DNA of 64,000 nucleotides. It comes from Psychromonas aquimarina ATCC BAA-1526. GTDB taxonomy: Bacteria > Pseudomonadota > Gammaproteobacteria > Enterobacterales > Psychromonadaceae. Positions within the stretch are counted from its first letter, which is position 1. Every line of letters begins with the position of its first letter. Below are positions 35,945 through 57,830 of this stretch, piece after piece. The notes beneath the pieces are model-generated. The model was given only the letters and a program-made list of their open reading frames with translations. It did no database searches and was not told the DNA's origin. Where the stretch lies: positions 364,234 to 428,233 of the forward strand of contig NZ_KE386792.1 of assembly GCF_000428725.1 (NCBI RefSeq). The letters are read 5' to 3'. The translations under genes and the position numbers were made by a program.

Positions 35945-35966
35945 TCTCAATTATTATAATAACCAG

Positions 35967-35994
35967 ACCAGTAATGCAGATTACTGGTTTTTTT
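35967..35994 (+). terminator. Rho-independent terminator after scrA
   Basis: ACCAGTAAT (35967-35975) and ATTACTGGT (35980-35988) enclose GCAG and run into seven T. It means scrK, 290 bases further on, needs read-through or its own promoter. Confidence 0.88.
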
Positions 35995-35999
35995 GCATA

Positions 36000-36264
36000 T
36001 ATACCCAAGCCACTTGAAGGTGCAGGAATCAGCAAGTCGAGAGGTGACTAGATTCAAGGCATAAAGCCGCAGGTCTAGCATTCTACATCAAGGTTTTATA
36101 ACACTGAAGATGGTTGACTCTCGCCTTGCCCTGCGGGAGCCTAGCTCGAAAATCAGCACGGCGTTACAATATTTGAAAAGGGAATAACCATTCTCTGCAT
36201 ATTGTGCCTTGTTCTGACTTCCGAGCTAAGCTCTGAATCTGCATATTCAAGTGGTTTGGGTATA
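36000..36264. mobile_element. MITE-like palindromic element between scrA and scrK
   Basis: TATACCCAAGCCACTTGAA at 36000-36018 is the inverse of TTCAAGTGGTTTGGGTATA at 36246-36264 with one mismatch. The symmetry continues inward imperfectly (TGCAGGAATCAG against CTGAATCTGCA). The 265-bp element has no coding frame. Similar TATACCCAA...TTGGGTATA elements occur in intergenic DNA of Vibrio-like genomes. It ends 15 bases before the scrK start, so the scrK ribosome binding site lies beside its edge. Confidence 0.75.
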
Positions 36265-36279
36265 AAATAAGGTCTTATC

Positions 36280-37203
36280 ATGAATAGAGTTTGGGTTACC
36301 GGTGATGCCGTTGTTGATTTAATTCCAGATGGTGAAAATAGTTATTTAAAATGTCCAGGCGGTGCTCCGGCTAATGTGGCGGCTGCTGTATCCCGCTTAG
36401 GCGGAGACAGTGCATTTTTCGGTCGTGTCGGTCAGGATCCGCTTGGCCGCTTTATGAAAAAAACGCTTAAGAATGAAGGTGTAAATACAGATTTTATGCT
36501 GCTTGATGAAGCGCAGCGTACTTCCACTGTCATTGTTGATTTAGACGATGCGGGTGAGCGCAGTTTCACCTTTATGGTAAAACCCAGTGCCGATCAGTTT
36601 ATGCTGTCGACTGATATACCGGCTTTTTCAGCAGATCAGTGGCTGCATGTCTGTTCCATTGCGCTTGCTAATGAACCCAGCCGCAGCAGTACTTTTCAGG
36701 CAATGCGCCGGATAAAAGAAGCAGGCGGATTTATCAGCTTTGATCCGAACCTACGTGATGAAGTCTGGGCAGATCCTAGTGAAATAAAATCAGTAGTATT
36801 AAAAGCGGCTGCAATGGCTGATGTGCTTAAATTTTCAGATGATGAGTTATTGTTTTTAACTGAAACAAAAACCATAGAGGCAGGACTTGAGGCAGTCAAA
36901 CACTACCGGAATACTCTTACTTTAATTACTCAGGGGGCAAAAGGCGCATTAGTCATTACCCAGGGTAAACAGGAGCTTATCACCGGTAAAACAGTAAAAG
37001 CAGTTGACACAACGGGTGCTGGAGATGCATTTGTCGGCGGCTTAATTAGTTATCTGGCACAAAACAGTTCATGGAGCAGCTCACAGCATATTCGTGATGC
37101 GGTAAAATGGGCCAACGGCTGCGGCGCTTTGGCCACGACTCAGAAAGGGGCTATGACCGCACTGCCTACAAGTGCTGAGCTTAGCCGCTATCTAAGCGAT
37201 TAA
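36280..37203 (+). CDS. scrK: Fructokinase, PfkB family
   Basis: A 307-residue ribokinase-fold kinase that phosphorylates the fructose released by ScrB. The N-terminal CPGGAPANVAAAVSRLGG (about residues 25-42) is the sugar-binding start of the family and DTTGAGDAFVGG carries the catalytic Asp249. GRVGQDPLGRFM and LRDEVW are further family positions. The start at 36280 follows TAAGG directly past the end of a MITE-like element, which may have replaced or carried its promoter. Part of the sucrose regulon by function and position. Confidence 0.93.
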   Translation: MNRVWVTGDAVVDLIPDGENSYLKCPGGAPANVAAAVSRLGGDSAFFGRVGQDPLGRFMKKTLKNEGVNTDFMLLDEAQRTSTVIVDLDDAGERSFTFMVKPSADQFMLSTDIPAFSADQWLHVCSIALANEPSRSSTFQAMRRIKEAGGFISFDPNLRDEVWADPSEIKSVVLKAAAMADVLKFSDDELLFLTETKTIEAGLEAVKHYRNTLTLITQGAKGALVITQGKQELITGKTVKAVDTTGAGDAFVGGLISYLAQNSSWSSSQHIRDAVKWANGCGALATTQKGAMTALPTSAELSRYLSD

Positions 37204-37218
37204 TAACAATTACCCAGA

Positions 37219-37252
37219 AGCCGGAAGCTAACCGCTGACGGCTCCTTTTCTT
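37219..37252 (+). terminator. Terminator after scrK
   Basis: AGCCG-GA-AGC and GCT-GA-CGGCT form a stem with a tandem G-A mismatch pair around TAACC, followed by CCTTTTCTT. Sixteen bases after the stop. Confidence 0.6.
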
Positions 37253-37593
37253 AGTTTGATTAAACGCTTCCCCTCCTATACTCCCCTCTATCTACATCAT
37301 TGCTTTTAAACAAATCCACTGAAAATGTCATTGTACTGCTTTGTCAGATTTATTAATTACTGTGCTAACCGCGGATATTACCTGCAGCAGCTTCCGTTTT
37401 TAACAGAGAATTACAGGCAGGAAAAACTGTCCTTTAATAAAACAAAACATAACAGTGCTTTAATAAGAGAGAAGCAGAAACAGGAAAAATACAGCGGTAT
37501 TTTACAAAGGTAAAACCAAAGGCGTAAAGAAGAACACTGCAGTCTTTTACAAAGGCTGCATTAGGGGGAAAAAGAAGGAGGCTCAAGAAAAGA
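37253..37593. other. Intergenic region without a supported gene
   Basis: About 340 bases between the convergent scrK and DUF4328 genes. An open frame at 37325-37513 (62 codons) has no ribosome binding site or recognisable product, so I leave it out. No repeat or regulatory site recognised. Confidence 0.5.
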
Positions 37594-37609
37594 GACGGCC
37601 GCAGCCGTC
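37594..37609 (-). terminator. Terminator after the DUF4328 gene
   Basis: GACGGC (37594-37599) and GCCGTC (37604-37609) with loop CGCA. On the minus strand the stem is followed by TCTTTTCTT. Confidence 0.75.
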
Positions 37610-37621
37610 CAAATAAACAGC

Positions 37622-38278
37622 TTACTTACAGCGGTTCTGCATAGACTCAATGCTGTTTAGCAGCAGCAGCGTCACTATCGCCAGAGGAATATCCAGTACA
37701 TTAGAAACCTGCGAGAGCATATTTAAATTCAATAATTCAGGCAGTGTCTGTGTTTCTGCCGATAACCTGAAAATAGACTGGCCTAACATATTCGATGTAA
37801 GCCACAGAGCCCACCATATGGGCACAACAATACTTACTTTATTAGAAGAGCAGTCCTGAGGGTTAGCACTGGCCTGCCAGAGCTCCTTCATTGCCTGGTA
37901 CGGTTTCCATAGATTAAAAACAGGAATAAAAAAGTAAGCAATGGACCAGGCTGGCGTATAAGTCATATTCTCTGCGCCAAGCTGGCGGACATTATAATTG
38001 GCCCGATATATCCACTGAACAATTAACAGTGCAGAGCCAATAAAGACTATAAGAGAAAGGATACCTACCCCCTGCAGTATATTAATGGCAGTTTCACCAG
38101 CGGCAAAGGCCTGCTCCAGCGAAGTATAAAGCCCGTCCTGGAAAGCTGATAATAACTGATACTCGACAGTTCCGAATATAATCGCTAAAACAGCAGTCAC
38201 TATCTGTGCATAAAGCACATATCTGATCCATATGGTCAGTTTTTGTGAATGTTTAAACTCATTTTTTACACTTAACAA
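37622..38278 (-). CDS. DUF4328 family membrane protein
   Basis: A 218-residue inner-membrane protein with four hydrophobic segments (about residues 17-40, 68-95, 118-135 and 190-210). The signature of the family is the IYRANYNVRQLGAENM segment at about 98-113, then PAWSIAYFFIPVFNLWKPYQ. Function unknown. It lies immediately downstream of the second scrA copy on the same strand (46 bases), so it may be co-transcribed with it, possibly by chance. Confidence 0.83.
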   Translation of the reverse strand: MLSVKNEFKHSQKLTIWIRYVLYAQIVTAVLAIIFGTVEYQLLSAFQDGLYTSLEQAFAAGETAINILQGVGILSLIVFIGSALLIVQWIYRANYNVRQLGAENMTYTPAWSIAYFFIPVFNLWKPYQAMKELWQASANPQDCSSNKVSIVVPIWWALWLTSNMLGQSIFRLSAETQTLPELLNLNMLSQVSNVLDIPLAIVTLLLLNSIESMQNRCK

Positions 38279-38323
38279 TTGCAGTTCTCCTTGCTAGTCT
38301 GCGTTTTTTTATTCTGATCTTCT

Positions 38324-39748
38324 TTATTTACTTTGCCTGGCTGCGCGTGCTCCTAATAATAGAGTTAAAGCGAATGCAGCAGTAAACGAAATCAGCATGC
38401 CGAAAATATAAGGCATCACATCTTCAGGGCGAATGGAGATAATGCCCGGCAGCCCGGCAGCACCTAAAGCTCCAGCCTTTACATTAAACAGGGTAATAAA
38501 TGCGCTTGAGCATGCGGCTGCAGTAACGGCGGCAATAAACGGGTAGCGCAGTTTTAAGTTCACCCCGAACATTGCCGGCTCGGTAATCCCCAGCAGCGCT
38601 GTTACGCCTGACGGAATGGCAATACCTTTAGTTTTAATATCTTGACTGCTGAATCCGACCGCTAATGCCGCCCCGCCCTGAGCAATATTAGACATAGCTG
38701 CAATCGGGAAGATAAAGGTACCGCCGGTCACAGCAATATCAGCCAGCAGCTGTATTTCAATGGCGATAAAACTATGATGCATACCGGTAATAACAAAAGG
38801 CGCATAGATAAAACCAAACAGTGCGCCGCCGATAAAACCTGCAGAATCGTATAACCAGTTTAAACCGTCACCTAATAGAAAGCCGATATCACGAGTAAAC
38901 GGCCCCACTATGGTAAAGGTAATCACACCTGTGATAAAAATAGCCAGCAGCGGGGTGAGCAGGTTATCTAATACGGAAGGAATAAATTTACGCAGGCCGT
39001 TTTCAACTTTAGCTAAGATAAATGCGGCAACTAATACCGGTAGAACGGAGCCCTGATAACCGACTTTTTGGATCTCAAACCCGAGTATATTCCACACAGG
39101 AATGGAGCCGGAAACACTGGCGCCGCCGAATCCCCAGCCGTTAAGCAGATCCGGATGTACCATCAACATGCCTAATGCAGCACCTAAGAAGGGGTTACCT
39201 CCGAATTTTTTACTGGCTGAAAATGCTAATAAGATAGGCAGATATACAAAAGGTGCATTAGCAAAAGTGTTAATCATAGCTGCCAGATCGGCTAGTCCCG
39301 GATTGGCATCAACCAGTGATTTTCCATCAATAAATAATCCCGGGGCTGCTAATACATTAAAAATCCCCATTAACAAGCCGCCGGCAACAATAGCGGGGAT
39401 AATCGGTACAAAGATATCTGACAGACCTTTAACTGCCTGCTGTACGATATTCTGTTTTTCAGTTCCGGCAGAAGTCACATCTTTGGTGCTCATCTCTTCC
39501 AGACCGGTTTGTTTTGCCATCTGGGTATAAACCTGGTTAACAATACCTGAGCCGAAAATTATCTGATACTGGCCGGCTACTTTAAACTGGCCTTTAACAC
39601 CTTCAAGATCTTCAATGGCTTTGTCGTTTATCAGTGACTCATCTTCCACAGCAAGGCGTAAACGGGTAGCACAATGAGCCAGTGCTTTAATATTATTTTT
39701 ACCGCCAAGCATATCGATCAGCTGACTGGCGGTTTTGCCATAATTCAT
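38324..39748 (-). CDS. scrA: PTS sucrose transporter subunit IIBC, second copy
   Basis: A 474-residue PTS permease nearly identical to the first scrA copy: I count about 24 differences, clustered near both ends, and the central stretch of roughly 160 residues from SIPVWNILG onward shows none. The EIIB Cys26 in ALAHCATRLRLAV and the GMHHSFIAIE region are intact, so it should work. The C-terminus is shorter and differs (ends GARAARQSK). It lies downstream of scrY on the same strand but a strong terminator separates them, and I find no scr operator in the 92 bases before its start. It could be a recent duplicate held under selection, or diverging toward another sugar. Confidence 0.94.
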   Translation of the reverse strand: MNYGKTASQLIDMLGGKNNIKALAHCATRLRLAVEDESLINDKAIEDLEGVKGQFKVAGQYQIIFGSGIVNQVYTQMAKQTGLEEMSTKDVTSAGTEKQNIVQQAVKGLSDIFVPIIPAIVAGGLLMGIFNVLAAPGLFIDGKSLVDANPGLADLAAMINTFANAPFVYLPILLAFSASKKFGGNPFLGAALGMLMVHPDLLNGWGFGGASVSGSIPVWNILGFEIQKVGYQGSVLPVLVAAFILAKVENGLRKFIPSVLDNLLTPLLAIFITGVITFTIVGPFTRDIGFLLGDGLNWLYDSAGFIGGALFGFIYAPFVITGMHHSFIAIEIQLLADIAVTGGTFIFPIAAMSNIAQGGAALAVGFSSQDIKTKGIAIPSGVTALLGITEPAMFGVNLKLRYPFIAAVTAAACSSAFITLFNVKAGALGAAGLPGIISIRPEDVMPYIFGMLISFTAAFALTLLLGARAARQSK

Positions 39749-39840
39749 AACTTTCTCCGAATAAACAGTGCTGTTTGGTTAGTCAGCAATAAGTCAGACA
39801 GTTGTAGATATAACTTTAATATAAAAAGAAAAAATAAAAC

Positions 39841-39861
39841 GCGGCGGCTCAGGGCCGCCGC
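39841..39861 (-). terminator. Terminator after scrY
   Basis: GCGGCGGC (39841-39848) and GCCGCCGC (39854-39861) form a perfect 8-bp GC stem, loop TCAGG. On the minus strand it is followed by GTTTTATTTTTTC. It separates scrY from the second scrA. Confidence 0.9.
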
Positions 39862-39942
39862 AAAAAAGTATAACCAACACACTCAATGAGTATAAATATA
39901 ACTAGGAATAATGCGCCGGATAAGGCGCAGTTCTGCGCTTAA

Positions 39943-41355
<1,413 letters not shown>

Positions 41356-41368
41356 TCAAAGCACGCTT

Positions 41369-41384
41369 TTGGGAACGTTTGCAG
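41369..41384 (-). promoter_or_regulatory. ScrR operator in front of scrY
   Basis: TTGGGAACGTTTGCAG, 56-71 bases before the scrY start at 41313. Identical in type to the sites at 33132, 34259 and 34411. Confidence 0.88.
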
Positions 41385-41522
41385 AAAGGAGTTTTAAATA
41401 ATTAAAGCGTATCATCAAGCAGATCATGGGTTAAATGTGATTAAGATCTTTGTTTTGTGTGATAAATGACCGATAAAGACGATCTTTTGACTATGAAATG
41501 TTTTATTTAGCCCTGAATATTT

Positions 41523-41537
41523 TGCAAACGATCCCAG
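41523..41537 (+). promoter_or_regulatory. Orphan scr-type operator pointing at decayed DNA
   Basis: TTGCAAACGATCCCAG around 41522-41537 matches the scrA operator in the plus orientation with one central change. No intact gene follows: next come an IS3-family remnant (41609-41770) and a scrB-like scrap. It could also serve as a second operator for scrY (209 bases from the start), allowing looping. Confidence 0.55.
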
Positions 41538-41608
41538 AGGTATTTCTAAAATAACGCTAAAAAGTACCTGCTACATTAAGGTAGATGAAACGAAACGATT
41601 AACAGCTT

Positions 41609-41770
41609 ATGCCTGTAATCAAAATAGCTAAGGCAGCGAATCCGCCCAAGGGTTCAGATCAATGTGTTCAATATGCGGGTGATAAATATCGCAAACCGCT
41701 TAAAAATCATAAGTTAATTGGGAGCATGAACAAAAAAGCTATTGTTGAGATAATGCGCCAGCAGCAGTGC
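41609..41770 (+). pseudogene. IS3-family transposase (OrfB) remnant
   Basis: The plus strand reads PPKG-SDQ-CVQYAGDKYRKPLKNHKLIGSMNKK from 41642. This matches the DDE region of IS3-family OrfB: the family has PPKG-(few residues)-HSDxGxQY, K-LK-H-LIGSM and then KGNCWDN. Here about four residues are missing before SDQ. After 41737 one base is lost, so the NCWDN part is out of frame and also has a stop (TGA for Trp). No other part of the IS or its ends is seen. A dead fragment. The left limit is approximate. Confidence 0.75.
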
Positions 41771-41806
41771 TGAAAATATACGCCGACATAACTAGCCACC
41801 GTAACA
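41769..41806 (-). pseudogene. Possible scrap of a second scrB 3' end
   Basis: On the minus strand 41771-41792 reads VMSAYIF-like codons and matches 19 of 22 bases of scrB near 31561-31582 (VMSARIF, in the C-terminal beta-sandwich), with CACCGT following in both. The match is short, so chance is not excluded. If real, it suggests that a duplicated scrB once stood here, next to scrY. Confidence 0.4.
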
Positions 41807-42231
41807 CCCTGTTATCAAAGACATTAACTTAATAGAAGATTATTAACTGTCTATTTTAGTTACAATTATGCCTTTATTTCTTACACTTTTTCTCCTCTAT
41901 ATGAGGCTTAACACATTGACTTCATTTGTTTTTCTAAGTAAATTCTAAAAAATACTTTATTAATAACCAAAGATAATATCAAACGGCTTTATAAACCCGG
42001 CAATGCTTACCATTCGTCCTAGTGCACCACCTCAATGAGCCCTGATTCAGGTAAGAATACTGTATGTTTATCAGCAGTTAATTTCGATTAAATGTAGTTA
42101 GAGTTATCAATGCCGTTTATTGCTAATAAACCAGATGCTGAATTTACTCGCAAATCAATCAATTACTCCACAGATACACTGTGGAAATAAGTCTGCGCTA
42201 AAAAGCAAAAAAATAGAAACAAGGAGAATTT
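41807..42231. other. Intergenic region before the yqiJ-like operon
   Basis: About 425 A/T-rich bases with no supported gene. It must hold the promoter of the flotillin operon (start 42232). No repeat or recognised operator found. Confidence 0.45.
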
Positions 42232-42867
42232 GTGGAACAATTTCTAATAAATATCACTAGCTACCCCACTATCATTTACACCGTGTTACTGCTAATTGTT
42301 ATTGTGTTTTGGTTACTCACTGTAATCGGCCTTTTTGATATGGATGTTTTAGAGCTGGATATCGATATTGACGTCTCAAATGTCGGCGGTGCCTTAGGCG
42401 TATTAGTAACATTAGGCTTAACCGGCGTCCCTATAACTCTGGTCATTAGTATTCTCATACTTTACGGCTGGACAATTACCTCAATACTTGTGTCCCTGAC
42501 AAGCTTTATCAGCATTGAAAATAGTCTGTTTATGTTTATTTTCAACAGCATTGTACTGCTGCTGGCAGCTGCAGTTTCAATCCCCCTCAGCGCGTTTACA
42601 ATCAGGCCGTTAAGAAAGTTATTTCGCTCGGCCAATCGAGGTCCAGTGCAGGAGTCTCTGACGGGTAAAACCTGTCGCGTGCGCAGTACTATAATTGACC
42701 ACCAGTTTGGTGAAATTGAATGCCAAAAAGACGGGGCCAGTTTAATCCTCAATGCTCGAGCGAATAAAGGCTGCCGATACAAAACCGATCAACAAGTCGT
42801 TATCATCGACTATTCAGAAGAACAAAACACCTATTTTGTCGTTAGCGAAAAAGAATTTAATCAATAA
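42232..42867 (+). CDS. yqiJ: YqiJ-like NfeD/OB-fold membrane protein
   Basis: A 211-residue inner-membrane protein with three or four helices (about residues 9-32, 48-68, 70-90 and 96-120) and a C-terminal OB-fold domain (about 140-205, SLTGKTCRVRSTIIDHQFG, then VVIIDYSEEQNTYFVV). This layout is that of YqiJ and NfeD proteins, which are partners of flotillins. Here the flotillin gene follows after 15 bases. The GTG start is preceded by AAGGAGA. In Escherichia coli yqiJ and yqiK form such a pair; their role is tied to membrane organisation but poorly defined. Confidence 0.85.
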   Translation: MEQFLINITSYPTIIYTVLLLIVIVFWLLTVIGLFDMDVLELDIDIDVSNVGGALGVLVTLGLTGVPITLVISILILYGWTITSILVSLTSFISIENSLFMFIFNSIVLLLAAAVSIPLSAFTIRPLRKLFRSANRGPVQESLTGKTCRVRSTIIDHQFGEIECQKDGASLILNARANKGCRYKTDQQVVIIDYSEEQNTYFVVSEKEFNQ

Positions 42868-42882
42868 ATGGAGCTCAAACTT

Positions 42883-44877
42883 ATGGATGTAAGCATCTTA
42901 TACACTATTGGAACATTCGTGATCATTGCCGTCGCAGTCATTGTATTCCTGGCAATGACATTCAGTGCCTTTTATAAAAAAATAAGTCAGGGGCATGCAA
43001 TGATTGTCAATGATATGTCCTCTAAACCAAAAGTACATTTTACCGGCGGCATGGTATTACCTGTTGTTCACAAAATGGAAATTATGAAAATTTCACTGAT
43101 CACCCTTGAAATTGATCGACGTAGTAACGACGGTTTGATCTGTAAAGACAATTTACGTGCAGATATTACCGTTGCATTCTATTTACGCGTTAATGAAACC
43201 CGTGATGATGTTTTAAAAGTAGCAAAATCAATCGGTGTTGAGCGCGCATCAGATAAACAAGCTGTGAACGAACTGTTTAACGCTAAATTCTCTGAAGCAT
43301 TAAAAACCGTAGGTAAGAAGATGAACTTTCTTGAGCTGTTTGAAAACCGCATTCAATTCCGTGAAGAGATCATTAAAGTGGTCGGCAGCGATCTGAATGG
43401 TTATGCTTTAGAAGATGTTGCCATTGACTACTTAGAGCAGACACCAAAAGCAAGCTTAGATGCAAATAACATTCTGGATGCAGAGGGGATCCGTAAAATT
43501 ACCGAGATAACCGCAGTACAAAATATTGAAACCAATCGCCTGGAAAAAGATGAGTCCCTTTCCATCACTAAAAAGAACGTCGAAACCAGAGAGGCTATGC
43601 TGGCTTTAGAGCGTCAGCAGATTGATGCCGAATCAAAGCAGGAACGCGAAATTGAAACGGTTAAAGCACGCGAAGAAGCAGAAACCCAAAAAGTTCAGCA
43701 GGAAGAACGCGCAAGAGCAGAGCAGGCCAGATTAGAAACCGATGAGCAGATCGCTATTCGCGAACAGGTAAAATTACGCCAGGTTGAAGTTGCAGAGCAG
43801 AGCAGAGCCCGTGCTGTTGTTATCGAAAAAGAAAAAGTGATCCGCGCCCAGCAGATGGAGGTGGTTAATCGTGAGCGGGAAGTTGCGCTGTCTGAAATTG
43901 ATAAAGACAAAGCGTTAGAAGAAGAACGTAAAGTTATTGCACAAACCATTAGTGAACGTATTGCAGTGGATCGCAAAGTGGCCGAAGAAGAGGAGCGAAT
44001 CAAAGAAGTTCAAGAGGTTTCCGAAGCCGACCGGCTTAAGCAGATTACCATCTTAGAAGCTGAAGCAAAAGCACAGGAAGAGTTATTACATGTAGTAAAA
44101 CAAGCGGAAGCTGAAGAACAAAAAGCGCAGCATAAAGCGCGTGAAATTAACTTAATGGCCCAGGCAAAATTAGAAGCGGCATCAAAAGAAGCAGAGGCGG
44201 TTAAGAAACTTGCGGAAGGTACACAGGCAGAAGAAGCAGCTCAAGGTTTAGCAGAAGCCAAAGTGTTAATTGCCAAAGCCGACGCAAACGAAAAAGACGG
44301 TTTAGCGCAGGCGCGGGTCCAGGAAGCACAAGCTAAAGCAAGTGAAACAGCAGGACTTGCACAAGCTAAAGTACTTGAAGAAAAACTGACTGCCGAAGCA
44401 CGCGGTAACGAAGAACTAGGCAAAGCACAAGCAGTGGCGACAAAAGAGGTCGGCTTAAGCGAAGCTGAAATATTAAGAGAAAAAGGCAAAGCAGAAGCTG
44501 ATGCATTAATTGATAAATTTGCCGCGATGAACAATATGAATAAGGAAAGTAAAGAATTTGAAGAGTTCCGCATGAACCTTGAAATTCAGTTCAAAGAAAC
44601 CATCGCTAATATCGAAGCAAATAAAGAGATTTCCAGCGATCAGGCGAATGTTCTCGCGTCGGCACTCAAGCATGCCAATATCGACATTGTCGGTGGTCAA
44701 GGTGATTATTTTGACAAATTGTCTAAAGGACTAGGCGCAGGTAATGCACTTAATGGATTTTTAGAGAAGAGCCCTGTTATTCAAAGCCTGATGGAAAAGT
44801 TATTAGGCGGCTCAGCTAACGAAAAAGAGATTAATCAGCCAATAGCGGCTGATAATGTAGCTGACTCTGAAGTTTAA
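42883..44877 (+). CDS. yqiK: Flotillin-family membrane scaffold protein, YqiK-like
   Basis: About 664 residues from the ATG at 42883, which has GGAG nine bases upstream; an ATG at 42868 touches the previous stop but has no site. One N-terminal membrane helix (about residues 5-30) leads to an SPFH domain (about 35-220; MVLPVVHKMEIMKISLITLE, then ADITVAFYLRVNE). A long Glu/Ala/Lys/Arg-rich coiled coil follows (about 220-560) and a C-terminal region with an NALNGFLEKSPVIQ-like end. Flotillins oligomerise in ordered membrane patches. The gene sits between yqiJ and the giant ATPase, which makes a functional complex likely. Confidence 0.92.
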   Translation: MDVSILYTIGTFVIIAVAVIVFLAMTFSAFYKKISQGHAMIVNDMSSKPKVHFTGGMVLPVVHKMEIMKISLITLEIDRRSNDGLICKDNLRADITVAFYLRVNETRDDVLKVAKSIGVERASDKQAVNELFNAKFSEALKTVGKKMNFLELFENRIQFREEIIKVVGSDLNGYALEDVAIDYLEQTPKASLDANNILDAEGIRKITEITAVQNIETNRLEKDESLSITKKNVETREAMLALERQQIDAESKQEREIETVKAREEAETQKVQQEERARAEQARLETDEQIAIREQVKLRQVEVAEQSRARAVVIEKEKVIRAQQMEVVNREREVALSEIDKDKALEEERKVIAQTISERIAVDRKVAEEEERIKEVQEVSEADRLKQITILEAEAKAQEELLHVVKQAEAEEQKAQHKAREINLMAQAKLEAASKEAEAVKKLAEGTQAEEAAQGLAEAKVLIAKADANEKDGLAQARVQEAQAKASETAGLAQAKVLEEKLTAEARGNEELGKAQAVATKEVGLSEAEILREKGKAEADALIDKFAAMNNMNKESKEFEEFRMNLEIQFKETIANIEANKEISSDQANVLASALKHANIDIVGGQGDYFDKLSKGLGAGNALNGFLEKSPVIQSLMEKLLGGSANEKEINQPIAADNVADSEV

Positions 44878-44941
44878 TTTAACTATCACAAGTCAGCGGC
44901 TTTGCCCTGACTTGTCGAATAATGCAGTTTAGGAAATCATT

Positions 44942-47900
44942 GTGACCGATAAATCAACTATTGTAGAACAGGCAGTAGCGCAAGGCGGCGCCTATGAAAT
45001 TATTCGTAAACGCCTTGAGGAGCAAGGCACTCAACTAGATAGTTTAACCCAAAAACTTAACCGGGACAGGCAGGAAGAGTTCGGCTCGACAGAAATGAAA
45101 GTGCTGGGCCGTGCCCGCATTCGTACTGAGCATAACTGCCAGGCCTCTGATTTAGTGATCGTTGGTGACCATGTTTTATTTGGTTACAATGTTTTTCTCG
45201 GCTTAAAAAAACAGACAGAGTTAAGCGATGTTCTTTCATTATTCAAGTTAGAACAAATTGATACTCAATATGAGTTAAAACCCGTTGAACTAGACAACTC
45301 TTTTTTAGCTGACCCGCGTTTTATCAGTGAATTTAACGAACTTTACGCCTATTACAAAGATGCAGTATTATCACAGCTGGTACTTCGAGATAACAAGCTG
45401 CTTGCCGCTTTTCAAATCGGTGAAAAACTCTCTGATATTCGAGTATTTCGCTGGCAGGTAAACGGCAGCGATATTGAATATATCGACAATCGCGGCGAGC
45501 GTGACTTACGCCTGCCCGATACCCATGACTTTAAATGGCGGCAGTGCACCCGGGAAGATGTTGTTGACGGACGCAATCCGCATATCAATATATTAGATAC
45601 ACTATTTATAGACAGTTTACGTGGTGATATCACGGTAAAAATCGAAAACAATACCAATGTAGGTCAAGGGATCTACAGTGAGCCTGTTGAAGAAAGCAAT
45701 CAGTCAATCAATGATACTGAATTTTATTATGCAGATCTTGATCCGATCATTCTGCTTAAGATCAAACCTTACCAGGAAAAGAATTTCCGCTATCTCATCT
45801 TTAATAAAAATAACCAGCATATACAGCGTATTGATGCGATTGGTGATTCATGCCGGCAGCTCCCGGAAAATCACGGCATCATTTTTCCAGGCGGCTACTA
45901 CCTGACCACTGGTGAATATAAAACCTTTGAAGATAATCTAGAAGGTCTGGTTTTCAAACGCTCCATGAAGTCGCCTAACGGCGAAGACGTGCTGTTTATT
46001 TTTTATCAGCCGCATACCAATGTAGTTGCGTTATACCCTTATAATTTAATTAATAAAACCCTGCAGAATCCCATGCTAGGTCACGGTTTTGGTTTCTTGG
46101 ACGACGGCCGTATGATCATATTTTATGCCGAAAAAGAGCCAAGTCGTATTCATCCCGTGCAGATATGGCAGACCGCCTATTATTCTGATCTTTTTGCCAG
46201 CCGGCAGGTACAGTCATCCAGCTTCTTCGGCAAAATCGGCAATACAGATTTAGTACGTGGTATTTCCGAGCTCTACAGTATTTCCAAAAGCATTCAGCAG
46301 CAGGAGGTCTCAGCCAATCATTACAACGAGTTAAGTAAACACTGCTCAACTATCTTTGATGCCTATTACTGGCTGGACAGCAGTGAATTAGCTGAGATCA
46401 GCGCGCTGCTGCACACAGTGAAAGAGACCTCAGAATCGGTTATCGACGAGTATGAAAAAGTAGAAAGCATTCGTCAGCAGTCGGATCTGGCACTTGCTGA
46501 AGCAAAAAACAGACAAGCTGAAATATTACGCCAGATACAGCCTAACAGCTGGCATACTCCGCAAGATTTTGTAGATGGACTTAATAAAATATCTGCCCAG
46601 CAGGGCCACTTATTAACCATTCGAGAATACCGCTATATTGATGTTGCTTTGATTGATGAGCTTAACCAGCAGCTGGCTGAAACCAGTGACGATCTGAATA
46701 CTGAAACGGTTAACTTCTTATCATCAGATGATGCACTGCAGACTTATTACAGCGATCTTGAGCAGATAACGACTAACAGCGCTCGAGCGCAGTCAACTGC
46801 AGAGTTAACACCGCAGATTGAAGCACTGAACAGCATATCGCAGGGGTTAGATTTAATCAGCCAGATTATGGCGAGTTTAAAGGTTTCTGATGCAGCGATG
46901 CAGACCCAAATCGTTGATGCTGTTTCCACTTTATACAGCAAAATTAACCAGCAGAAAGCACAGCTCAGCCACCAGCAGAAAAGCTTCGGCAGTCACGAAG
47001 CCCAGGCACAATTTTCGGCACGTTTAAAATTAATAAATCAAAGTATCCACAATGCGCTGAGCCTCTCAACAACGCCAGATAAGTGCGATGAGCAGTCGGC
47101 AAGACTGCTCATCCAGATTGAAGAGCTGGAAAGTGAATTCAGCGACTATGATGACTTTATCGGCGATATTATCAGCAAACGTGATGAGATATTTGACTCC
47201 TTTGAAAGCCATAAACAGTCATTAATCGAAGCCAGACAACGTAAAGCACAATCCTTAGAGGATGCAGGCAAACGAATACTCAAATCCATTACAAAACGTA
47301 TTAACCGCTTTGATCAAGCCGATGAAATGAACGCATTTTTTGCGGCTGACAGTTTAGTTAACAAAATACGCGATATTATCTCGCAGTTAACCCGGCTTGA
47401 TAATTCGGTAAAAGCCGAAGACTTAGACGCGAAGTTAAAAGCGATTAACGCACAGGCATTACGCTCGTTACGTGATAAGAGTGATCTCTTTGAAGACGGC
47501 GGTAATGTGATTAAACTCGGCCCTCGTCATAAGTTTTCGGTTAATAAACAAGCCTTAGATTTAAGCATCCTGCCCAAAGATGAACAGCTGTATGTGCGTT
47601 TATCGGGCACAGATTATATGCAGCCCCTGCATAACGAACCATTAGCGCAGTTAAAACCCTATTGGAATATTCACCTGCCTTCTGAGTCGGCGCAGTTATA
47701 CCGCAGTGAATTTTTAGCCAATGCCATTCTCCAGGCGGCCGTCCAGCAGCAGGATAACTTAACCTGGCAGACACTTAAATCGGTAATGGCAAGTCAAAAG
47801 CAGCTCGCTGAACTGGTCAGCGAATTTGCCGGCACCCGCTTTAAGGAAGGTTATGAAAAAGGCATTCATGACTTTGATGCAGCCTTAATACTAGAGAAAT

Positions 47901-50113
47901 TACTTCCCGCCTATGAATCGGCTGGTGTTTTTATCCACAGCCCTTTTGCCAGAGGTCTTGCGTGTATTTTCTGGGCCAATACACAAACAGAAAAACAGCA
48001 GGTTTTATGGTTACAGTCTTGTAAAAATGCAGCACAGATGCAGCAGGTATTCGGGCAGCTCACCGCCAAAGAAAATATTATCAGTGAAATTACCCGCTCT
48101 TTAACGGCTTTTTTACAGCTGCATCAGCTGCATATTGATCCGCAAACCATCAGTCGTGCCGCTGAATATTTAAGTGAAGAGCTGGCTAATGAACAGCTAA
48201 GCTTCGCCACCAGTAAATACGCACGCAGATTATGTGATGAGTTTAAAACCCATTTAAGCAGCCGCAATGTCTGGCAGGACTACCAGCAGTTACTAAATGA
48301 GCTGCAGGGACAGACGGGCAGACGCTGGCAGCTGACCGAGAGCTGGCTTGCAGCCTATGTTGAGTCACAGGACAAAAGCGGTTTAGTCGATTTTATCGGA
48401 GAAGCTATTGGTATTCTCAATGCAGAACAACGCATTGACAGAAACGATCGTGAGGTCGATATTCAGTTTACCGTCACCGGTTTATTAGGTACGCACAGCA
48501 GCATTCAGCAGCAGAGTCTGAGCATACAGCTGCCCGATTTCCTAGACCGTAATAGTTATTTCAACCAGCAGGTATTACCCAACTATCTGGATTATTTAAC
48601 CCTTCGTCAGCAGGTCATGGATGAGCAGAGGGAATTATTACGTCTTCACGAGTTTAAAGCGAAACCACTCTCTTCTTTTGTGCGAAACCGCTTAATTTCA
48701 GATGCTTATCTGCCTATTATTGGCGATAATCTTGCTAAACAGATAGGCACGGCAGGCAGTAAAAAACGTACCGATCTGATGGGGCTGTTATTAATGATCT
48801 CCCCGCCTGGTTACGGTAAAACCACATTAATGGAATACGTGGCCGATCGTCTTGGTCTGATTTTCATGAAAATTAACTGCCCTGTTATCGGTCATACGGT
48901 GACTTCTGTGGATCCGGCCGGCGCAGAAGACAGTGCAGCTAGACAAGAGTTAGAGAAGCTTAATCTTGCCTTAGAGATGGGCAGTAACGTCATGCTTTAC
49001 CTCGATGATATTCAGCACACCAATTCCGAATTTCTACAGAAATTTATTTCCCTTTGTGATGGAACTCGAAAAATAGAGGGGGTATGGCAGGGCAAAACCA
49101 AAACCTATGATATGCGCGGCAAAAAGTTCTGTGTGGTCATGGCGGGTAACCCTTACACAGAAACGGGCGAAACTTTCCAAATTCCAGATATGCTTGCCAA
49201 CCGTGCCGATATTTATAATCTAGGTGACGTGCTCAGCGGTAAAGAGGAGGTGTTTAATTTAAGCTATATAGAAAACGCATTAACCTCCAACGCCGTATTA
49301 GCACCATTAGCCACCCGCGATATGCAGGATGTTTATAAATTTGTCGATATGGCCAAGGGTAAAGAGGTTGCCGGCACCGACTTCAGCCATCAATACAGTG
49401 GTGCTGAAATTAAAGAAATTGTGACTGTTTTACAAAAACTGCAGCGTATACAAACGGTGGTTGCTTTAGTTAACCGACAGTATATAAGCTCAAGTGCACA
49501 AGATACAAAATACCGCACAGAGCCGCCGTTTAAGCTGCAGGGATCCTATCGTAATATGAATAAAATGGCTGAAAAAGTGTCCTCCATCATGACCGATGCG
49601 GAATTAAACGATTTGATAGATGACCACTACCAGGGTGAATCACAATTGTTAACCAGCGGTACTGAAGCCAATTTACTCAAATTAGCTGAGCTGCGTGAGC
49701 AGTTAAGCGAAGAGCAGCGAGTGCGCTGGGCATCGATAAAAGCTGATTTTAAGCGTAATGTTGCCATGGGCGGGGATGACACTGACAGCGGTCAAAAAAT
49801 TGTCGGGCAGTTAAACGATATCGTCACCGCCATCAACAGCCAGCGTGACAGCCAAATGGCGCTTCAGAAACAAAACAGCAGTAACGATACCTTTGCTGAA
49901 ATAGAACAATTGATAACCCGTCTTGGTGAAGTGTTAAATAAAGATCTCTCTAAGAGCCTGGATGCCAATCAAAACCGCCTGGTTAAAGTACTGACCGGCA
50001 CGTTTGACCCGCTGGCACAGTTAATTACTGGAAAAACAGATTATGACCAGGGTATCTGTAAAAGTATCGAGGAGATAAACCAGAAACTCGAGCAGCTTGT
50101 GAGGGGGACTTAA
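44942..50113 (+). CDS. Giant AAA+ ATPase of the 'DNA repair ATPase' family
   Basis: A 1723-residue protein. The first ~400 residues are beta-rich and not recognised (a GRARIRTEHNCQASDLVIVG segment opens it); about 440-1250 is largely helical with long coiled-coil-like stretches rich in Gln, Glu and Leu. The AAA+ module follows: Walker A SPPGYGKTTL at about 1286-1294, Walker B VMLYLDDIQ at about 1349-1357 and a sensor 1 region FCVVMAGNPYTETGE at about 1400. The helical tail is 1500-1723. Database relatives are often called DNA repair ATPases, a name that rests on weak evidence. The operon context with flotillin suggests a membrane-linked remodelling role. Start is GTG. Confidence 0.8.
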   Translation: MTDKSTIVEQAVAQGGAYEIIRKRLEEQGTQLDSLTQKLNRDRQEEFGSTEMKVLGRARIRTEHNCQASDLVIVGDHVLFGYNVFLGLKKQTELSDVLSLFKLEQIDTQYELKPVELDNSFLADPRFISEFNELYAYYKDAVLSQLVLRDNKLLAAFQIGEKLSDIRVFRWQVNGSDIEYIDNRGERDLRLPDTHDFKWRQCTREDVVDGRNPHINILDTLFIDSLRGDITVKIENNTNVGQGIYSEPVEESNQSINDTEFYYADLDPIILLKIKPYQEKNFRYLIFNKNNQHIQRIDAIGDSCRQLPENHGIIFPGGYYLTTGEYKTFEDNLEGLVFKRSMKSPNGEDVLFIFYQPHTNVVALYPYNLINKTLQNPMLGHGFGFLDDGRMIIFYAEKEPSRIHPVQIWQTAYYSDLFASRQVQSSSFFGKIGNTDLVRGISELYSISKSIQQQEVSANHYNELSKHCSTIFDAYYWLDSSELAEISALLHTVKETSESVIDEYEKVESIRQQSDLALAEAKNRQAEILRQIQPNSWHTPQDFVDGLNKISAQQGHLLTIREYRYIDVALIDELNQQLAETSDDLNTETVNFLSSDDALQTYYSDLEQITTNSARAQSTAELTPQIEALNSISQGLDLISQIMASLKVSDAAMQTQIVDAVSTLYSKINQQKAQLSHQQKSFGSHEAQAQFSARLKLINQSIHNALSLSTTPDKCDEQSARLLIQIEELESEFSDYDDFIGDIISKRDEIFDSFESHKQSLIEARQRKAQSLEDAGKRILKSITKRINRFDQADEMNAFFAADSLVNKIRDIISQLTRLDNSVKAEDLDAKLKAINAQALRSLRDKSDLFEDGGNVIKLGPRHKFSVNKQALDLSILPKDEQLYVRLSGTDYMQPLHNEPLAQLKPYWNIHLPSESAQLYRSEFLANAILQAAVQQQDNLTWQTLKSVMASQKQLAELVSEFAGTRFKEGYEKGIHDFDAALILEKLLPAYESAGVFIHSPFARGLACIFWANTQTEKQQVLWLQSCKNAAQMQQVFGQLTAKENIISEITRSLTAFLQLHQLHIDPQTISRAAEYLSEELANEQLSFATSKYARRLCDEFKTHLSSRNVWQDYQQLLNELQGQTGRRWQLTESWLAAYVESQDKSGLVDFIGEAIGILNAEQRIDRNDREVDIQFTVTGLLGTHSSIQQQSLSIQLPDFLDRNSYFNQQVLPNYLDYLTLRQQVMDEQRELLRLHEFKAKPLSSFVRNRLISDAYLPIIGDNLAKQIGTAGSKKRTDLMGLLLMISPPGYGKTTLMEYVADRLGLIFMKINCPVIGHTVTSVDPAGAEDSAARQELEKLNLALEMGSNVMLYLDDIQHTNSEFLQKFISLCDGTRKIEGVWQGKTKTYDMRGKKFCVVMAGNPYTETGETFQIPDMLANRADIYNLGDVLSGKEEVFNLSYIENALTSNAVLAPLATRDMQDVYKFVDMAKGKEVAGTDFSHQYSGAEIKEIVTVLQKLQRIQTVVALVNRQYISSSAQDTKYRTEPPFKLQGSYRNMNKMAEKVSSIMTDAELNDLIDDHYQGESQLLTSGTEANLLKLAELREQLSEEQRVRWASIKADFKRNVAMGGDDTDSGQKIVGQLNDIVTAINSQRDSQMALQKQNSSNDTFAEIEQLITRLGEVLNKDLSKSLDANQNRLVKVLTGTFDPLAQLITGKTDYDQGICKSIEEINQKLEQLVRGT

Positions 50114-50114
50114 G

Positions 50115-50399
50115 ATGGCAGTGATTAATATTACAAGAGAGCATAAGCTTACCTTAACCGAACTCAAGCAGAAAATTAATGCTATAGCGATTGAGTTAGA
50201 ACAGCAGTATCAACTGCAAAGCGAATGGGAAGAAAACTGCCTTTTCTTTCGCCGCAAAGGAGCCAGCGGCAGTATTGAAATTGATGAGCAGCAGTTAGAA
50301 TTAAATCTAACCCTTGGCTCATTATTCAAAATAGCGAAAAGTAAAATAGAGGAAGAGATAAAAACAATGCTGGATAAGCAGTTACCTAGAAGCTGTTAA
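50115..50399 (+). CDS. Small protein resembling the polyhydroxyalkanoate granule-region family (PHA_gran_rgn)
   Basis: A 94-residue soluble protein directly after the giant ATPase (the ATG is one base past its stop; the ribosome binding site GAGGGGGACT lies in the end of the previous gene). The pattern ITREHKLTLTELKQKINAIA, then a W-E-E-N-x-L-x-F-x-R-K-G segment, a GSIEID turn and a closing LGSLFKIAKSKIEEEIKTML helix fits the family of small proteins encoded next to PHA synthesis genes. In this context no PHA synthase is present. Its role with the ATPase is unknown; a small lipid or granule surface factor is a guess. Confidence 0.6.
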   Translation: MAVINITREHKLTLTELKQKINAIAIELEQQYQLQSEWEENCLFFRRKGASGSIEIDEQQLELNLTLGSLFKIAKSKIEEEIKTMLDKQLPRSC

Positions 50400-50440: not shown

Positions 50441-50473
50441 AACAGCACTCCTATACAAAACAGGAGTGCTGTT
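50441..50473 (-). terminator. Terminator between the flotillin operon and the RND operon
   Basis: AACAGCACTCCT (50441-50452) and AGGAGTGCTGTT (50462-50473) form a 12-bp stem. On the minus strand it is followed by TTTTTAGTTTTTA, so it mainly ends the efflux operon; it can also act on the convergent operon. Confidence 0.85.
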
Positions 50474-55562: not shown

Positions 55563-56060
55563 TTACAACAGATCCATAGTGATCTCGTCAAAAGGGTAAA
55601 CCATACCGCCGAACTCTTTACTGAAAGCGAGTGCATCATCCTGTCTGCTGAAACTTGCTAATGTTTTCCCCATAGCCCCTTTTTTACTTGAGCCCACCAC
55701 AAACCATGCTTTACGTGCATCGATAAAATACTCGTCATTAAGCTTATTCCATGGCGTTTTACTCATATCATGGACAAAAATATGCTGCGCCTGACGTTTA
55801 TTTTCCGGCTGCAGAAGATAACTGAACATATCTCGGGTTGAACAGAATTTAGCCGCCTGCTCGGAACCTTTCTCAAAAATTTCACCTTTAGGACCGGGGT
55901 AGTTAGTAATGATCATACCGCAGAGATGGCATTCATCGCTGTTCTCAATAGCGGCGGCCTGCTTTACCATCTGCTGCTGCGTATCAGCTTCACTGCAGCC
56001 GAGTAATAGTGATAAAAAAGTGAATATAAAAACAGTTTTACACAAAGCAAATTTTTTCAT
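55563..56060 (-). CDS. nosL: NosL, copper-binding lipoprotein for nitrous oxide reductase maturation
   Basis: A 165-residue outer- or inner-membrane lipoprotein: the signal ends LLGC with Cys22 lipidated. The conserved motif CHLCGMIITNYPGPKGEIF-like stretch begins at about residue 40 and includes the Cys and Met residues that bind Cu(I) in NosL. It delivers copper to NosZ, with NosDFY. It is the last gene of the operon and is 34 bases downstream of nosY. Confidence 0.93.
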   Translation of the reverse strand: MKKFALCKTVFIFTFLSLLLGCSEADTQQQMVKQAAAIENSDECHLCGMIITNYPGPKGEIFEKGSEQAAKFCSTRDMFSYLLQPENKRQAQHIFVHDMSKTPWNKLNDEYFIDARKAWFVVGSSKKGAMGKTLASFSRQDDALAFSKEFGGMVYPFDEITMDLL

Positions 56061-56094
56061 TTTAAGTCCTTTATTATTAGATGGTTGAAATTTA

Positions 56095-56913
56095 TTAAAT
56101 TGTTTTTCTACTAAAAATAGTCATTGCGGCAAGCAGAGGTGCAATGACCCAGGCGAGCATCACCAGCAGTAAACTCACAGCTGAATGACTGCTGTTAACC
56201 GCAACGGCTAATACACCGTTAACATCTCCAGTATCTAAAGCGGCCAGGTTAATCAAGCGAAACAGATCCGCCGGATTGAACATCATGAGCTGCACTAAGC
56301 CCTGCTGGCTTACGCCGTTTTCAATACCTATTAATAACGCCAGCAGCACCAGATCAAATACCAGGATAAAGAACAGCCAGACTATTAACGATAAACCGGC
56401 CGCTTTGGATTTCTCGGAAACCGATAAACTAATAACAAAAGCAAAACCGACAAAAGTAAGCCCAAGCAGTATCGAAGTTAAGATAAACAGAGAAAATGCA
56501 GGTAATACGGCGGCAAAACTTGAATTAAAACCCAGCAGTAATGCTGCACTGCCGAAACCAAGCACCGTTGCCAGGGTGATGATACTGCCCATGCCTAAGA
56601 ACTTTCCTAACAGCAGCTGCCCATGGCTGATTGGATAAGTTAATAATAACAGTAAGGTGCCGGACTCCTGCTCGCCGACAAAACTGTCATAACAAAGCAG
56701 CAGCGCAATTAATGGAATAATAAAGACCGACAGACTGGATAAGCTGGCAATCGTAGTTGACAGCGAAGGCGCAGTAATCTGCCCAGATGCAGCCGAGCCG
56801 TAATAACTCAAACCGATCGACAACACAGAAAAAATTAAAGTAATGGAGATAAACCAGCGGTTCCTAAGGCCGTCTTGAAACTCTTTTAATGCCACTGCCA
56901 GAATAGGATTCAT
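56095..56913 (-). CDS. nosY: NosY, ABC transporter permease for nitrous oxide reductase maturation
   Basis: A 272-residue inner-membrane protein with six helices (about residues 20-40, 58-78, 95-120, 125-160, 170-195 and 240-265). The start overlaps the end of nosF by four bases (ATGA), showing translational coupling. With the ATPase NosF and the periplasmic NosD it forms the NosDFY complex that hands copper or sulfur to NosZ. The N-terminal ALKEFQDGLRNRWFISI is typical. Confidence 0.92.
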   Translation of the reverse strand: MNPILAVALKEFQDGLRNRWFISITLIFSVLSIGLSYYGSAASGQITAPSLSTTIASLSSLSVFIIPLIALLLCYDSFVGEQESGTLLLLLTYPISHGQLLLGKFLGMGSIITLATVLGFGSAALLLGFNSSFAAVLPAFSLFILTSILLGLTFVGFAFVISLSVSEKSKAAGLSLIVWLFFILVFDLVLLALLIGIENGVSQQGLVQLMMFNPADLFRLINLAALDTGDVNGVLAVAVNSSHSAVSLLLVMLAWVIAPLLAAMTIFSRKTI

Positions 56914-57830
56914 AGTTTACTCCCCTGCTCTATCGAGCTCTTATTATCTGCAAGATAATGCTGATAGATATGCTCCAGACTGGCAGCTTCGACCTGAATA
57001 TCGCTGATATTTTCAAATTCCATTAACTGACGGATAATCTGCACCTTCTGTGATTCAGGCACCAGCAGATGATTATGGGCCACCATAAAACCAGCTAACT
57101 GTTCATTGTTTTTAAGTGCACCGTTAATGCCCTGGGTTTTAATCGAAACCGGCAGCCGGGCGGCATCACGCAAAGCCGATAACGTACCTATGGCGGCAGA
57201 TTTTCCAGCTGATAAAATCATTGCCCGGTCAATATGCTGCTCAACCCCGGGCAGTACATGCGAGCAGAGAATAATACTTGCGCCGCTGCTTTTAAGCTGA
57301 TCAACGCTGCTGTAAAACTCCTGTGTGGCACTCGGATCCAGACCGACGGTCGGTTCATCAAGCAGCAGCAGTTTCGGATCACCTAAAAATGCCTGTGCTA
57401 AACCTAAACGCTGTCTCATTCCTTTTGAATAGGTTTTAACGGCGCGATCTTTAGCATCAGCAAGCCCCACTTTTTCTAATAACTCCACAATCTGATTTTT
57501 TGGTGCTGATTTTAAACGAGCAAAATAGGTCAGCACTTCAGTTCCGCTAAGCTGATCATAAAAACTTACATTTTCCGGTAAATAACCTATTTTTTTACGG
57601 CTCGCCCAGGCCTGTTTATCTAAAGGATCCAGACCAAATACCGATACATTTCCAGCAGATACTTTAATAATGCCTAAAATCAGTTTCATCATGGTTGTTT
57701 TACCAGCACCGTTATGACCAAACAGCCCGAGCACTTCTCCGGCCTCAAGGCGCAGATCAATGTTCTGTAACGCTTTAATCTTCTGATAATGCTTATTTAC
57801 CTGCTCTAATAATACAATCGTCTCACTCAT
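56910..57830 (-). CDS. nosF: NosF, ABC transporter ATP-binding subunit
   Basis: A 306-residue ATPase. Walker A GHNGAGKTT at residues 38-46, the ABC signature YSKGMRQRLGLAQ at about 135-147 and Walker B LLLLDEPTVGLDP at about 153-165 are all intact. It powers NosY. The gene starts seven bases after nosD and overlaps nosY by four. Confidence 0.95.
   Translation of the reverse strand: MSETIVLLEQVNKHYQKIKALQNIDLRLEAGEVLGLFGHNGAGKTTMMKLILGIIKVSAGNVSVFGLDPLDKQAWASRKKIGYLPENVSFYDQLSGTEVLTYFARLKSAPKNQIVELLEKVGLADAKDRAVKTYSKGMRQRLGLAQAFLGDPKLLLLDEPTVGLDPSATQEFYSSVDQLKSSGASIILCSHVLPGVEQHIDRAMILSAGKSAAIGTLSALRDAARLPVSIKTQGINGALKNNEQLAGFMVAHNHLLVPESQKVQIIRQLMEFENISDIQVEAASLEHIYQHYLADNKSSIEQGSKL

What the first reader, a model, noticed from the sequence alone, without database searches (positions are those of the whole stretch)
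42232..50399. Flotillin plus giant AAA+ ATPase operon (YqiJ-YqiK-ATPase-PHA_gran_rgn-like)
Four genes are tightly packed on one strand: NfeD/OB-fold membrane protein, flotillin, a 1723-residue AAA+ protein with intact Walker motifs and a 94-residue protein of the PHA granule-region type. Seen: gene order, spacing (15, 64 and 1 base), motifs. Known: NfeD-like and flotillin proteins form membrane patches. Inference: the ATPase is recruited to a flotillin scaffold and remodels membrane, lipid or DNA there; stress or phage defence are possible. The label DNA repair ATPase gives no mechanism. I know of no described role for this four-gene set.
Basis: partly seen in the sequence, partly recalled or inferred. 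Interest (0 to 1): 0.75.

Follow-up and report, generated by a model that had tools for sequence, protein, structure and literature searches.

The report
Flotillin and giant ATPase membrane operon
This is a bacterial membrane-stress gene set (a membrane platform plus a giant ATP-driven motor protein) of a kind described in 2024, here carrying an extra small protein from a family otherwise seen beside fat- and plastic-storage genes, which may dock the motor on lipid surfaces.

Summary
The first three (YqiJ-like membrane protein, flotillin, 1723-aa AAA+ protein with Pfam DUF3686) are one conserved unit: colinear in 81 of 83 loci with enough upstream sequence. Ravi et al. 2024 already described it, often with PspA and a CesT/Tir-type DUF2170 protein; 50 of 78 loci here have that pair nearby, and in the window's genome it lies on another contig. 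The matching Pseudomonas aeruginosa genes are reported as co-transcribed (bacA-F) and, in another study, as raised by phage infection (PA3728-PA3732). Best reading: a PSP-type envelope-stress system, not a defence system. The fourth gene (PHA_gran_rgn family) is no general partner (3 of 86 loci). It is fixed in one ATPase clade: nine genomes, two families, same four-gene order; the three tested have no PHA synthase over cut-off. Its modest model resembles KA1 domains among others, and the clade shares a basic hairpin. Elsewhere the family often sits beside phasins or wax-ester/triacylglycerol synthases. The ATPase module looks like NorQ/CbbQ, dynein and RuvB in structure; short sequence matches favour p97-type proteins. 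New variant of a known kind.

The parts
42232..42867 (+). YqiJ-like (NfeD2 type) membrane protein, 211 aa
   Evidence: family profile vs E. coli YqiJ: hhalign probability 92, E 6e-07; no Pfam match
42883..44877 (+). flotillin of the ATPase-linked subfamily, 664 aa (ORF can start at 42868)
   Evidence: 28% identity over 472 columns to E. coli YqiK, E 3e-44; Band_7 matched in 3 of 22 relatives, not in this one
44942..50113 (+). giant AAA+ protein, 1723 aa
45035..46369 (+). DUF3686 region, residues 32-476 (Ravi et al. [quoted passage not shown] not modelled here)
   Evidence: for the published reading
46730..46981 (+). DUF7902 region, residues 597-680
48800..48823 (+). Walker A SPPGYGKT, residues 1287-1294
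   Evidence: all eight residues 1.0 conserved
48995..49009 (+). Walker B LYLDD, residues 1352-1356
   Evidence: both Asp 1.0 conserved
49070..49111 (+). predicted beta-hairpin before the sensor-1 strand, residues 1377-1390
   Evidence: secondary structure of the model
50115..50399 (+). PHA_gran_rgn family protein, 94 aa, KA1-like predicted fold

Best explanation
A PSP-type envelope-stress operon. YqiJ and the flotillin form a platform on the inner membrane (inferred from the YqiJK/YuaF-FloT families). The 1723-aa protein is held there by its long N-terminal and helical regions and uses its single C-terminal AAA+ module, which has a predicted pre-sensor-1 hairpin, to pull apart or rebuild protein assemblies at the membrane; the PspA/DUF2170 pair encoded elsewhere in this genome is the likeliest client (inferred). 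In this clade the 94-aa protein was added once: a small KA1-like domain that binds an anionic lipid surface and docks or regulates the machine there (inferred). Shown: conserved linkage, one origin of the four-gene form on the trees made, homologies, presence of the PspA pair, no PHA synthase over cut-off in the three genomes tested. Inferred: platform, client, lipid binding, energy use.
For: Colinear YqiJ-flotillin-ATPase in 81 of 83 loci. PspA and DUF2170 nearby in 50 of 78 loci (one representative of each family checked by Pfam); one adjacent pair in this genome on contig C12. Published: the same unit with PspA (passages); P. aeruginosa bacABCDEF co-transcribed by RT-PCR, with a putative sigma54 site and a bacA mutant with biofilm effects (passages); PA3728-PA3732 up in all phage-infected samples (one passage); PA3728 labelled ATPase (one table passage). 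AAA+ module: best VIA matches NorQ Z 14.8, CbbQ 14.3, dynein 14.2. Small protein: KA1 domains lead the VIA list, SAD kinase Z 10.3 over 82 residues, Chk1 9.7, Kcc4p 8.7; nine linked copies form one clade, with Lys/Arg at position 48 in 9 of 9 against 2 of 36 unlinked. That KA1 domains bind acidic phospholipids is recalled.
Against: No direct interaction evidence; the PspA pair is not near the operon here, nor in L021 or L027. No sigma54-like site upstream of YqiJ. Walker B has Asp-Asp, so hydrolysis may be weak. The published P. aeruginosa flotillin deletion (paFlo3) has only mild effects (passages). Foldseek puts RuvB first for the AAA+ module (E 1.6e-05, CbbQ third at 2.1e-05), and a sequence profile matches NVL/p97-type AAA best, over about 33 residues (E 1.8e-04). 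The small-protein model has mean pLDDT 75.6 from two sequences; Foldseek's best E is 5.9e-3; non-KA1 proteins (spermine synthase Z 9.2, Integrator 9.1) stand among the KA1 rows. Its net charge is not basic (13 K+R, 15 D+E), and the position-48 trait may be one event, as the nine are one clade.
Confidence: 0.5

Rival explanations
1. Activase of a membrane enzyme: the AAA+ ring works like NorQ/CbbQ, loading cofactor into or reactivating a specific membrane complex gathered by the flotillin, and PspA is only a co-regulated neighbour.
For: NorQ and CbbQ are the best VIA matches of the AAA+ module and among the best in Foldseek; in Shewanella the classic YqiK-type protein SO1377 affects iron metabolism (passages); a nitrous-oxide reductase-like gene cluster lies about 5 kb downstream in this window (by eye).
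Against: No VWA-domain gene was recognised among the recurrent neighbour families, but part of that list was cut from view and only five families were identified by Pfam. No strand pair is predicted for the helix-2 insert of MoxR proteins (the feature is recalled).
Confidence: 0.22
2. Lipid-inclusion machine: the operon handles storage-lipid or PHA granules and the small protein is a true granule-surface protein.
For: Elsewhere PHA_gran_rgn genes sit beside wax ester/diacylglycerol acyltransferases (12 of 21 unlinked loci of the order and 1 of 15 of the class) and phasins (5 of 21 and 3 of 15); neighbours were picked by eye and then confirmed by Pfam, so these are lower bounds. YqiK overproduction gave opaque, possibly lipid inclusions (unpublished data told in PMC2636767, passage).
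Against: No PhaC over cut-off in the three operon-bearing genomes tested. 83 of 86 ATPase loci with downstream room lack the small gene. Whether this genome has a wax ester/TAG synthase was not tested.
Confidence: 0.15
3. Anti-phage defence system.
For: Patchy presence (DUF3686 in 2 of 24 genomes of the genus, own included) and nesting of the window's ATPase inside another family's copies suggest transfer; PA3728-PA3732 is up in phage-infected samples (one passage).
Against: No PADLOC family at a convincing score (best E 0.0046, a partial ZorB match of the small protein). The recurrent neighbours identified are PspA, DUF2170, PLD-like, rhomboid and an EF-hand-like protein. A systematic defence-island test was not run.
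Confidence: 0.07

Closest known systems
YqiJ/YuaF - Band-7/flotillin - AAA+ operons with or without PspA and CesT/Tir (Ravi et al. 2024, PMC11237479)
   Same: Same three proteins; PspA/DUF2170 pair present in this genome though unlinked, as that paper suggests for 'abbreviated' operons
   Different: Fourth gene of the PHA_gran_rgn family, not named in that paper's main text (no hit for 'polyhydroxyalkanoic' or 'granule'; its supplements were not seen)
P. aeruginosa bacABCDEF / PA3732-PA3728 (PMC10948618, PMC13086221)
   Same: Short NfeD, flotillin (PaFlo3) and, by gene order in P. composti L037 and the label, the same ATPase (inference)
   Different: PspA and DUF2170 inside the operon; in P. 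composti L037 a small EF-hand-like gene lies between flotillin and ATPase and no PHA_gran_rgn gene was found
Classic yqiJK (E. coli, Shewanella SO1376-SO1377)
   Same: YqiJ beside the flotillin, in 13 of 13 classic loci fetched (13 of the 14 classic genomes)
   Different: Flotillin only 26-31% identical and no DUF3686 gene in those 14 genomes
MoxR-type AAA+ ATPases NorQ and CbbQ
   Same: Best VIA matches of the AAA+ module
   Different: Fused to large N-terminal regions, no VWA partner recognised, helix-2 insert not seen, Walker B Asp-Asp
KA1 domains of MARK/SAD/Chk1 kinases
   Same: Predicted beta-alpha-beta4-alpha fold, Z about 8-10
   Different: About 5-17% identity, stand-alone bacterial protein, lipid binding untested; other proteins of this general fold score nearly as high

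Membership tests
Ravi et al. 2024 YqiJ-flotillin-AAA+ operon | AAA+ protein with a long N-terminal region (here DUF3686) and C-terminal AAA+ module | tested here: met
   that their 'novel AAA+ ATPase' is this Pfam family is inferred from architecture and neighbours
Ravi et al. 2024 YqiJ-flotillin-AAA+ operon | beta-propeller repeats and coiled coil in the N-terminal part | not tested
   only residues 846-1640 were modelled
Ravi et al. 2024 YqiJ-flotillin-AAA+ operon | flotillin of the YqiK kind next to it | tested here: met
   homology to YqiK; colinear in 81 of 83 loci
Ravi et al. 2024 YqiJ-flotillin-AAA+ operon | YqiJ/YuaF-type membrane protein | tested here: met
   hhalign probability 92 to E. 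coli YqiJ
Ravi et al. 2024 YqiJ-flotillin-AAA+ operon | PspA-CesT/Tir pair inside the operon (full form only) | tested here: not met
   absent nearby, present on another contig; so the abbreviated form
PHA_gran_rgn (PF09650 / TIGR02610) | score above the curated cut-offs | tested here: met
   84.6 bits vs 26.6; 66.1 vs 40.25
PHA granule system | PHA synthase in the genome | tested here: not met
   no PhaC_N match; for PHA_synth_III_C nothing over cut-off in G000, G009, G333, only fragments at E 7.8e-04 (G000) and 2.3e-05 (G333)
KA1 domain | beta-alpha-beta4-alpha fold with anionic-lipid binding | tested here: inconclusive
   fold similarity on a pLDDT 75.6 model; lipid binding not testable here
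MoxR AAA+ family | pre-sensor-1 beta-hairpin (shared with other clades) | tested here: met
   strands 1377-1382 and 1385-1390 between the helix after Walker B and the sensor-1 strand of the model
MoxR AAA+ family | helix-2 insert and VWA partner | tested here: inconclusive
   no strand pair predicted between the second strand and Walker B; no VWA gene recognised among recurrent neighbours, list partly cut
classical AAA (Vps4/p97 type) | match above other clades | tested here: inconclusive
   for: Pfam AAA E 2.3e-05 and short NVL/p97 sequence matches, best E 1.8e-04; against: none in the 50 rows
RuvB (DNA repair) | full-length RuvB match | tested here: not met
   NCBIfam RuvB 19.4 bits against a cut-off of 282, over about 50 residues; RuvB is nonetheless Foldseek's first row for the AAA+ module
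known anti-phage systems | match to a PADLOC model | tested here: not met
   three proteins without match, small protein only E 0.0046

The most novel reading that the evidence does not exclude
PHA_gran_rgn proteins are bacterial KA1-like lipid-surface modules. In the Aliikangiella-type clade one became a fixed subunit that brings a flotillin-tethered, MoxR-like ATPase to anionic membrane or lipid-body surfaces, joining the PSP stress response to neutral-lipid biology. The four genes move between families as one cassette.
Probability: 0.2. Interest if true: 0.7.

Novelty: new variant of a known kind. Interest (0 to 1): 0.45.

Why it matters
Few energy-using partners of bacterial flotillins are known (recalled). 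A flotillin subfamily bound to one giant AAA+ ATPase in at least three phyla (Pseudomonadota, Myxococcota, Planctomycetota among the loci), with PspA as a frequent neighbour, is a testable bacterial counterpart of ATP-driven membrane remodelling. The extra gene gives a handle on PHA_gran_rgn, a family named after its neighbours, and suggests a lipid-surface role that does not need PHA.

Tried and rejected
DNA repair: the Pfam text 'ATPase involved in DNA repair' found no support here beyond fold: RuvB is a weak local sequence match and Foldseek's first row (E 1.6e-05), which I read as a shared AAA+ superclade, not function. The literature search for DUF3686 gave 0 papers.

PHA granule role from the label alone: set aside for this genome because no PHA synthase over cut-off was found. 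In the class sample 10 of 16 PHA_gran_rgn genomes do have one (6 by PF07167, 4 by TIGR01836, an eleventh below cut-off); the other 5, this genome included, show none or only faint fragments.

sigma54 promoter: 28 sites with up to 2 mismatches in the window, fewer than the 41.6 expected, none in 41314-42231. sigma70-like (19, mean of shuffles 19.5) and terminator-like (11, mean 9.9) counts do not exceed shuffles.

A first neighbour count with a greedy gene caller lost real genes (Flot 59, YqiJ 62 of 92); replaced by six-frame profiles (87 and 81 of 92) and by the room-corrected count. Loci that miss both despite room: L023 and L084. Close species remain among the 92 and some may be one genome under two handles; no two ATPases were identical over their last 1000 residues. 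In one search at most 20 candidates a genome were scored. In one search L178 was dropped as the same place as L143.

Solved-structure sequence searches for flotillin and YqiJ found nothing useful; for the small protein nothing below E 0.13; for the AAA+ part only short matches, p97/NVL type first, RuvB at 0.0014. Foldseek gave the small protein no match under 0.001. Vps4 and p97 are not in the 50 VIA rows; that is no evidence against them, and the AAA+ domain was not folded alone.

Literature for the gene set; none of the listings or passages seen links PHA_gran_rgn with a flotillin or this ATPase. Supplementary files were not open to me.
Full report
Observation. The four ORFs, strand and spacing are as stated. 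Pfam gives DUF3686, DUF7902 and weak AAA matches for the 1723-aa protein and PHA_gran_rgn for the 94-aa protein. The YqiJ and flotillin ORFs have no Pfam match of their own, but E. coli YqiK aligns to the flotillin with 28% identity over 472 columns and the YqiJ family profile matches E. coli YqiJ (hhalign probability 92). The Walker motifs are present in a family-specific form (SPPGYGKT; LYLDDIQ), conserved over the relatives aligned.

The three-gene core. Of the 83 with at least 2.7 kb before the ATPase, 81 have YqiJ and flotillin, all 81 colinear on one strand; L023 and L084 lack both. Among 60 genomes (own included), the flotillins with 49% identity or more occur in the same 8 genomes as DUF3686, while 14 other genomes show only a classic YqiK at 26-31% identity. 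The family is patchy: 7 of 276 gammaproteobacterial genomes.

Wider partners. PspA was found upstream in 52 of 92 loci and DUF2170 in 52 of 92, 48 of each on the ATPase's strand (one representative each checked); both are present in 50 of 78 loci with at least 2.5 kb before YqiJ. PLD-like (24 of 92) and rhomboid (19 of 92) proteins also recur. In the window's genome PspA and DUF2170 lie together on contig C12.

What is in print. Ravi et al. [quoted passage not shown] Wallart et al. 2024 (passages) show the six-gene bac operon of P. aeruginosa by RT-PCR. A 2026 paper (passages) names its flotillin PaFlo3 and reports about 20% less biofilm in its mutant. That bacF is the ATPase is my inference from the gene order in P. 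composti L037 and the label 'ATPase' for PA3728 (one table passage). PA3728-PA3732 were up in all phage-infected samples in one study (one passage).

The ATPase. The model of residues 846-1640 (58 sequences, pLDDT 87.4) has a beta-hairpin just before the sensor-1 strand. Best VIA matches are NorQ (Z 14.8, rmsd 4.0, 239 residues), CbbQ, dynein and ClpA-type domains. Foldseek alone puts RuvB first (1.6e-05), then CbbQ and NorQ among MCM, Lon and ClpX rows. That these share the pre-sensor-1 hairpin is recalled knowledge. Against this, the sequence profile's best solved-structure matches are NVL and p97 types, over about 33 residues around Walker A. I lean to the hairpin superclade, without claiming MoxR membership.

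The fourth gene. PHA_gran_rgn follows the ATPase in 3 of 86 loci with downstream room. A search of 394 genomes of the order found the family in 40; of the 30 whose loci I could read, 9 have the ATPase directly upstream; 10 were not read. The nine (window; eight others) have the full four-gene order; from the ATPase's last sense codon to the small ORF the eight others show -50 to 146 bases. Their ATPases are one clade (100/100), as are their small proteins (98/94). In the ATPase tree the window's genus, where 2 of 24 genomes carry DUF3686, is sister to G542 inside family f8 (99/88). In the small-protein tree it also falls among f8 rows but with a different sister and weaker support (93/78). Family f8 holds G640, whose match has the same coordinates as that of Aliikangiella marina's genome (G333). 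This suggests transfer of the whole cassette. The gene order has outlasted a fall of the small protein to 34% identity (L188), which argues for selection to stay together.

What the fourth protein may do. Its model (two sequences, pLDDT 75.6) is beta-alpha-beta4-alpha. KA1 domains of several kinases head the VIA list, Z about 8 to 10.3, above the 7-8 that the tool calls typical for unmatched models, but spermine synthase (9.2) and Integrator (9.1) stand among them, and Foldseek alone is weak. Among unlinked loci, wax ester/diacylglycerol acyltransferases lie beside it in 12 of 21 loci of the order (seven of them from one family, f25) and 1 of 15 of the class, phasins in 5 of 21 and 3 of 15; these were picked by eye before the Pfam check, so they are lower bounds. 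No PHA synthase over cut-off was found in the three operon-bearing genomes tested. Linked copies have Lys or Arg at position 48 in 9 of 9, unlinked in 2 of 36; as the nine are one clade this may be a single change. I infer a lipid-surface adaptor; net charge is not basic in the window's copy and nothing here tests binding.

Verdict. A real, conserved unit; three genes already described; the added fourth gene and its single-origin, transferable form were not met in print in my searches of the library held.

Noticed in passing
window 55563-63648, - strand: By eye a nitrous-oxide reductase (nos) type gene cluster: NosL-, NosY-, NosF-, NosD-, NosZ- and NosR-like ORFs; not checked with a library.
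   Followed up: no
window 31493-41313: By eye a sugar PTS cluster with two similar PTS transporters (34394-35944 +, 38324-39748 -), a LacI-type regulator, a sugar kinase and a porin.
   Followed up: no
L140 8022-10300 (own genome contig C12): DUF2170 and PspA pair followed by two further same-strand ORFs; one resembles, by eye, neighbour family 11.
   Followed up: partly
L023 and L084: ATPase without YqiJ or flotillin within reach (L084 is Moraxella boevrei): exceptions that could show whether the ATPase works alone.
   Followed up: no
L037 9536-9808: Small EF-hand-like protein (below Pfam cut-offs) between flotillin and ATPase in a Pseudomonas locus; 14 of 92 loci hold the family.
   Followed up: partly
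L120, L122 (G283, G184): Divergent PHA_gran_rgn genes, unlinked to the ATPase, in genomes with DUF3686 and no PHA synthase over cut-off; TetR and phasin-like neighbours confirmed by Pfam in G283 only.
   Followed up: partly
L019 (G029): ATPase ORF broken into two pieces (one TGA inside the DUF3686 match); possible pseudogene or sequencing error.
   Followed up: no
literature, PA3728: PA3728 appears in tables of genes repeatedly mutated in cystic fibrosis isolates of P. aeruginosa (table passages).
   Followed up: no
window 50441-50473: Terminator-like stem between the small gene and the convergent RND gene, with its T-run on the - strand, so it fits the RND gene.
   Followed up: no
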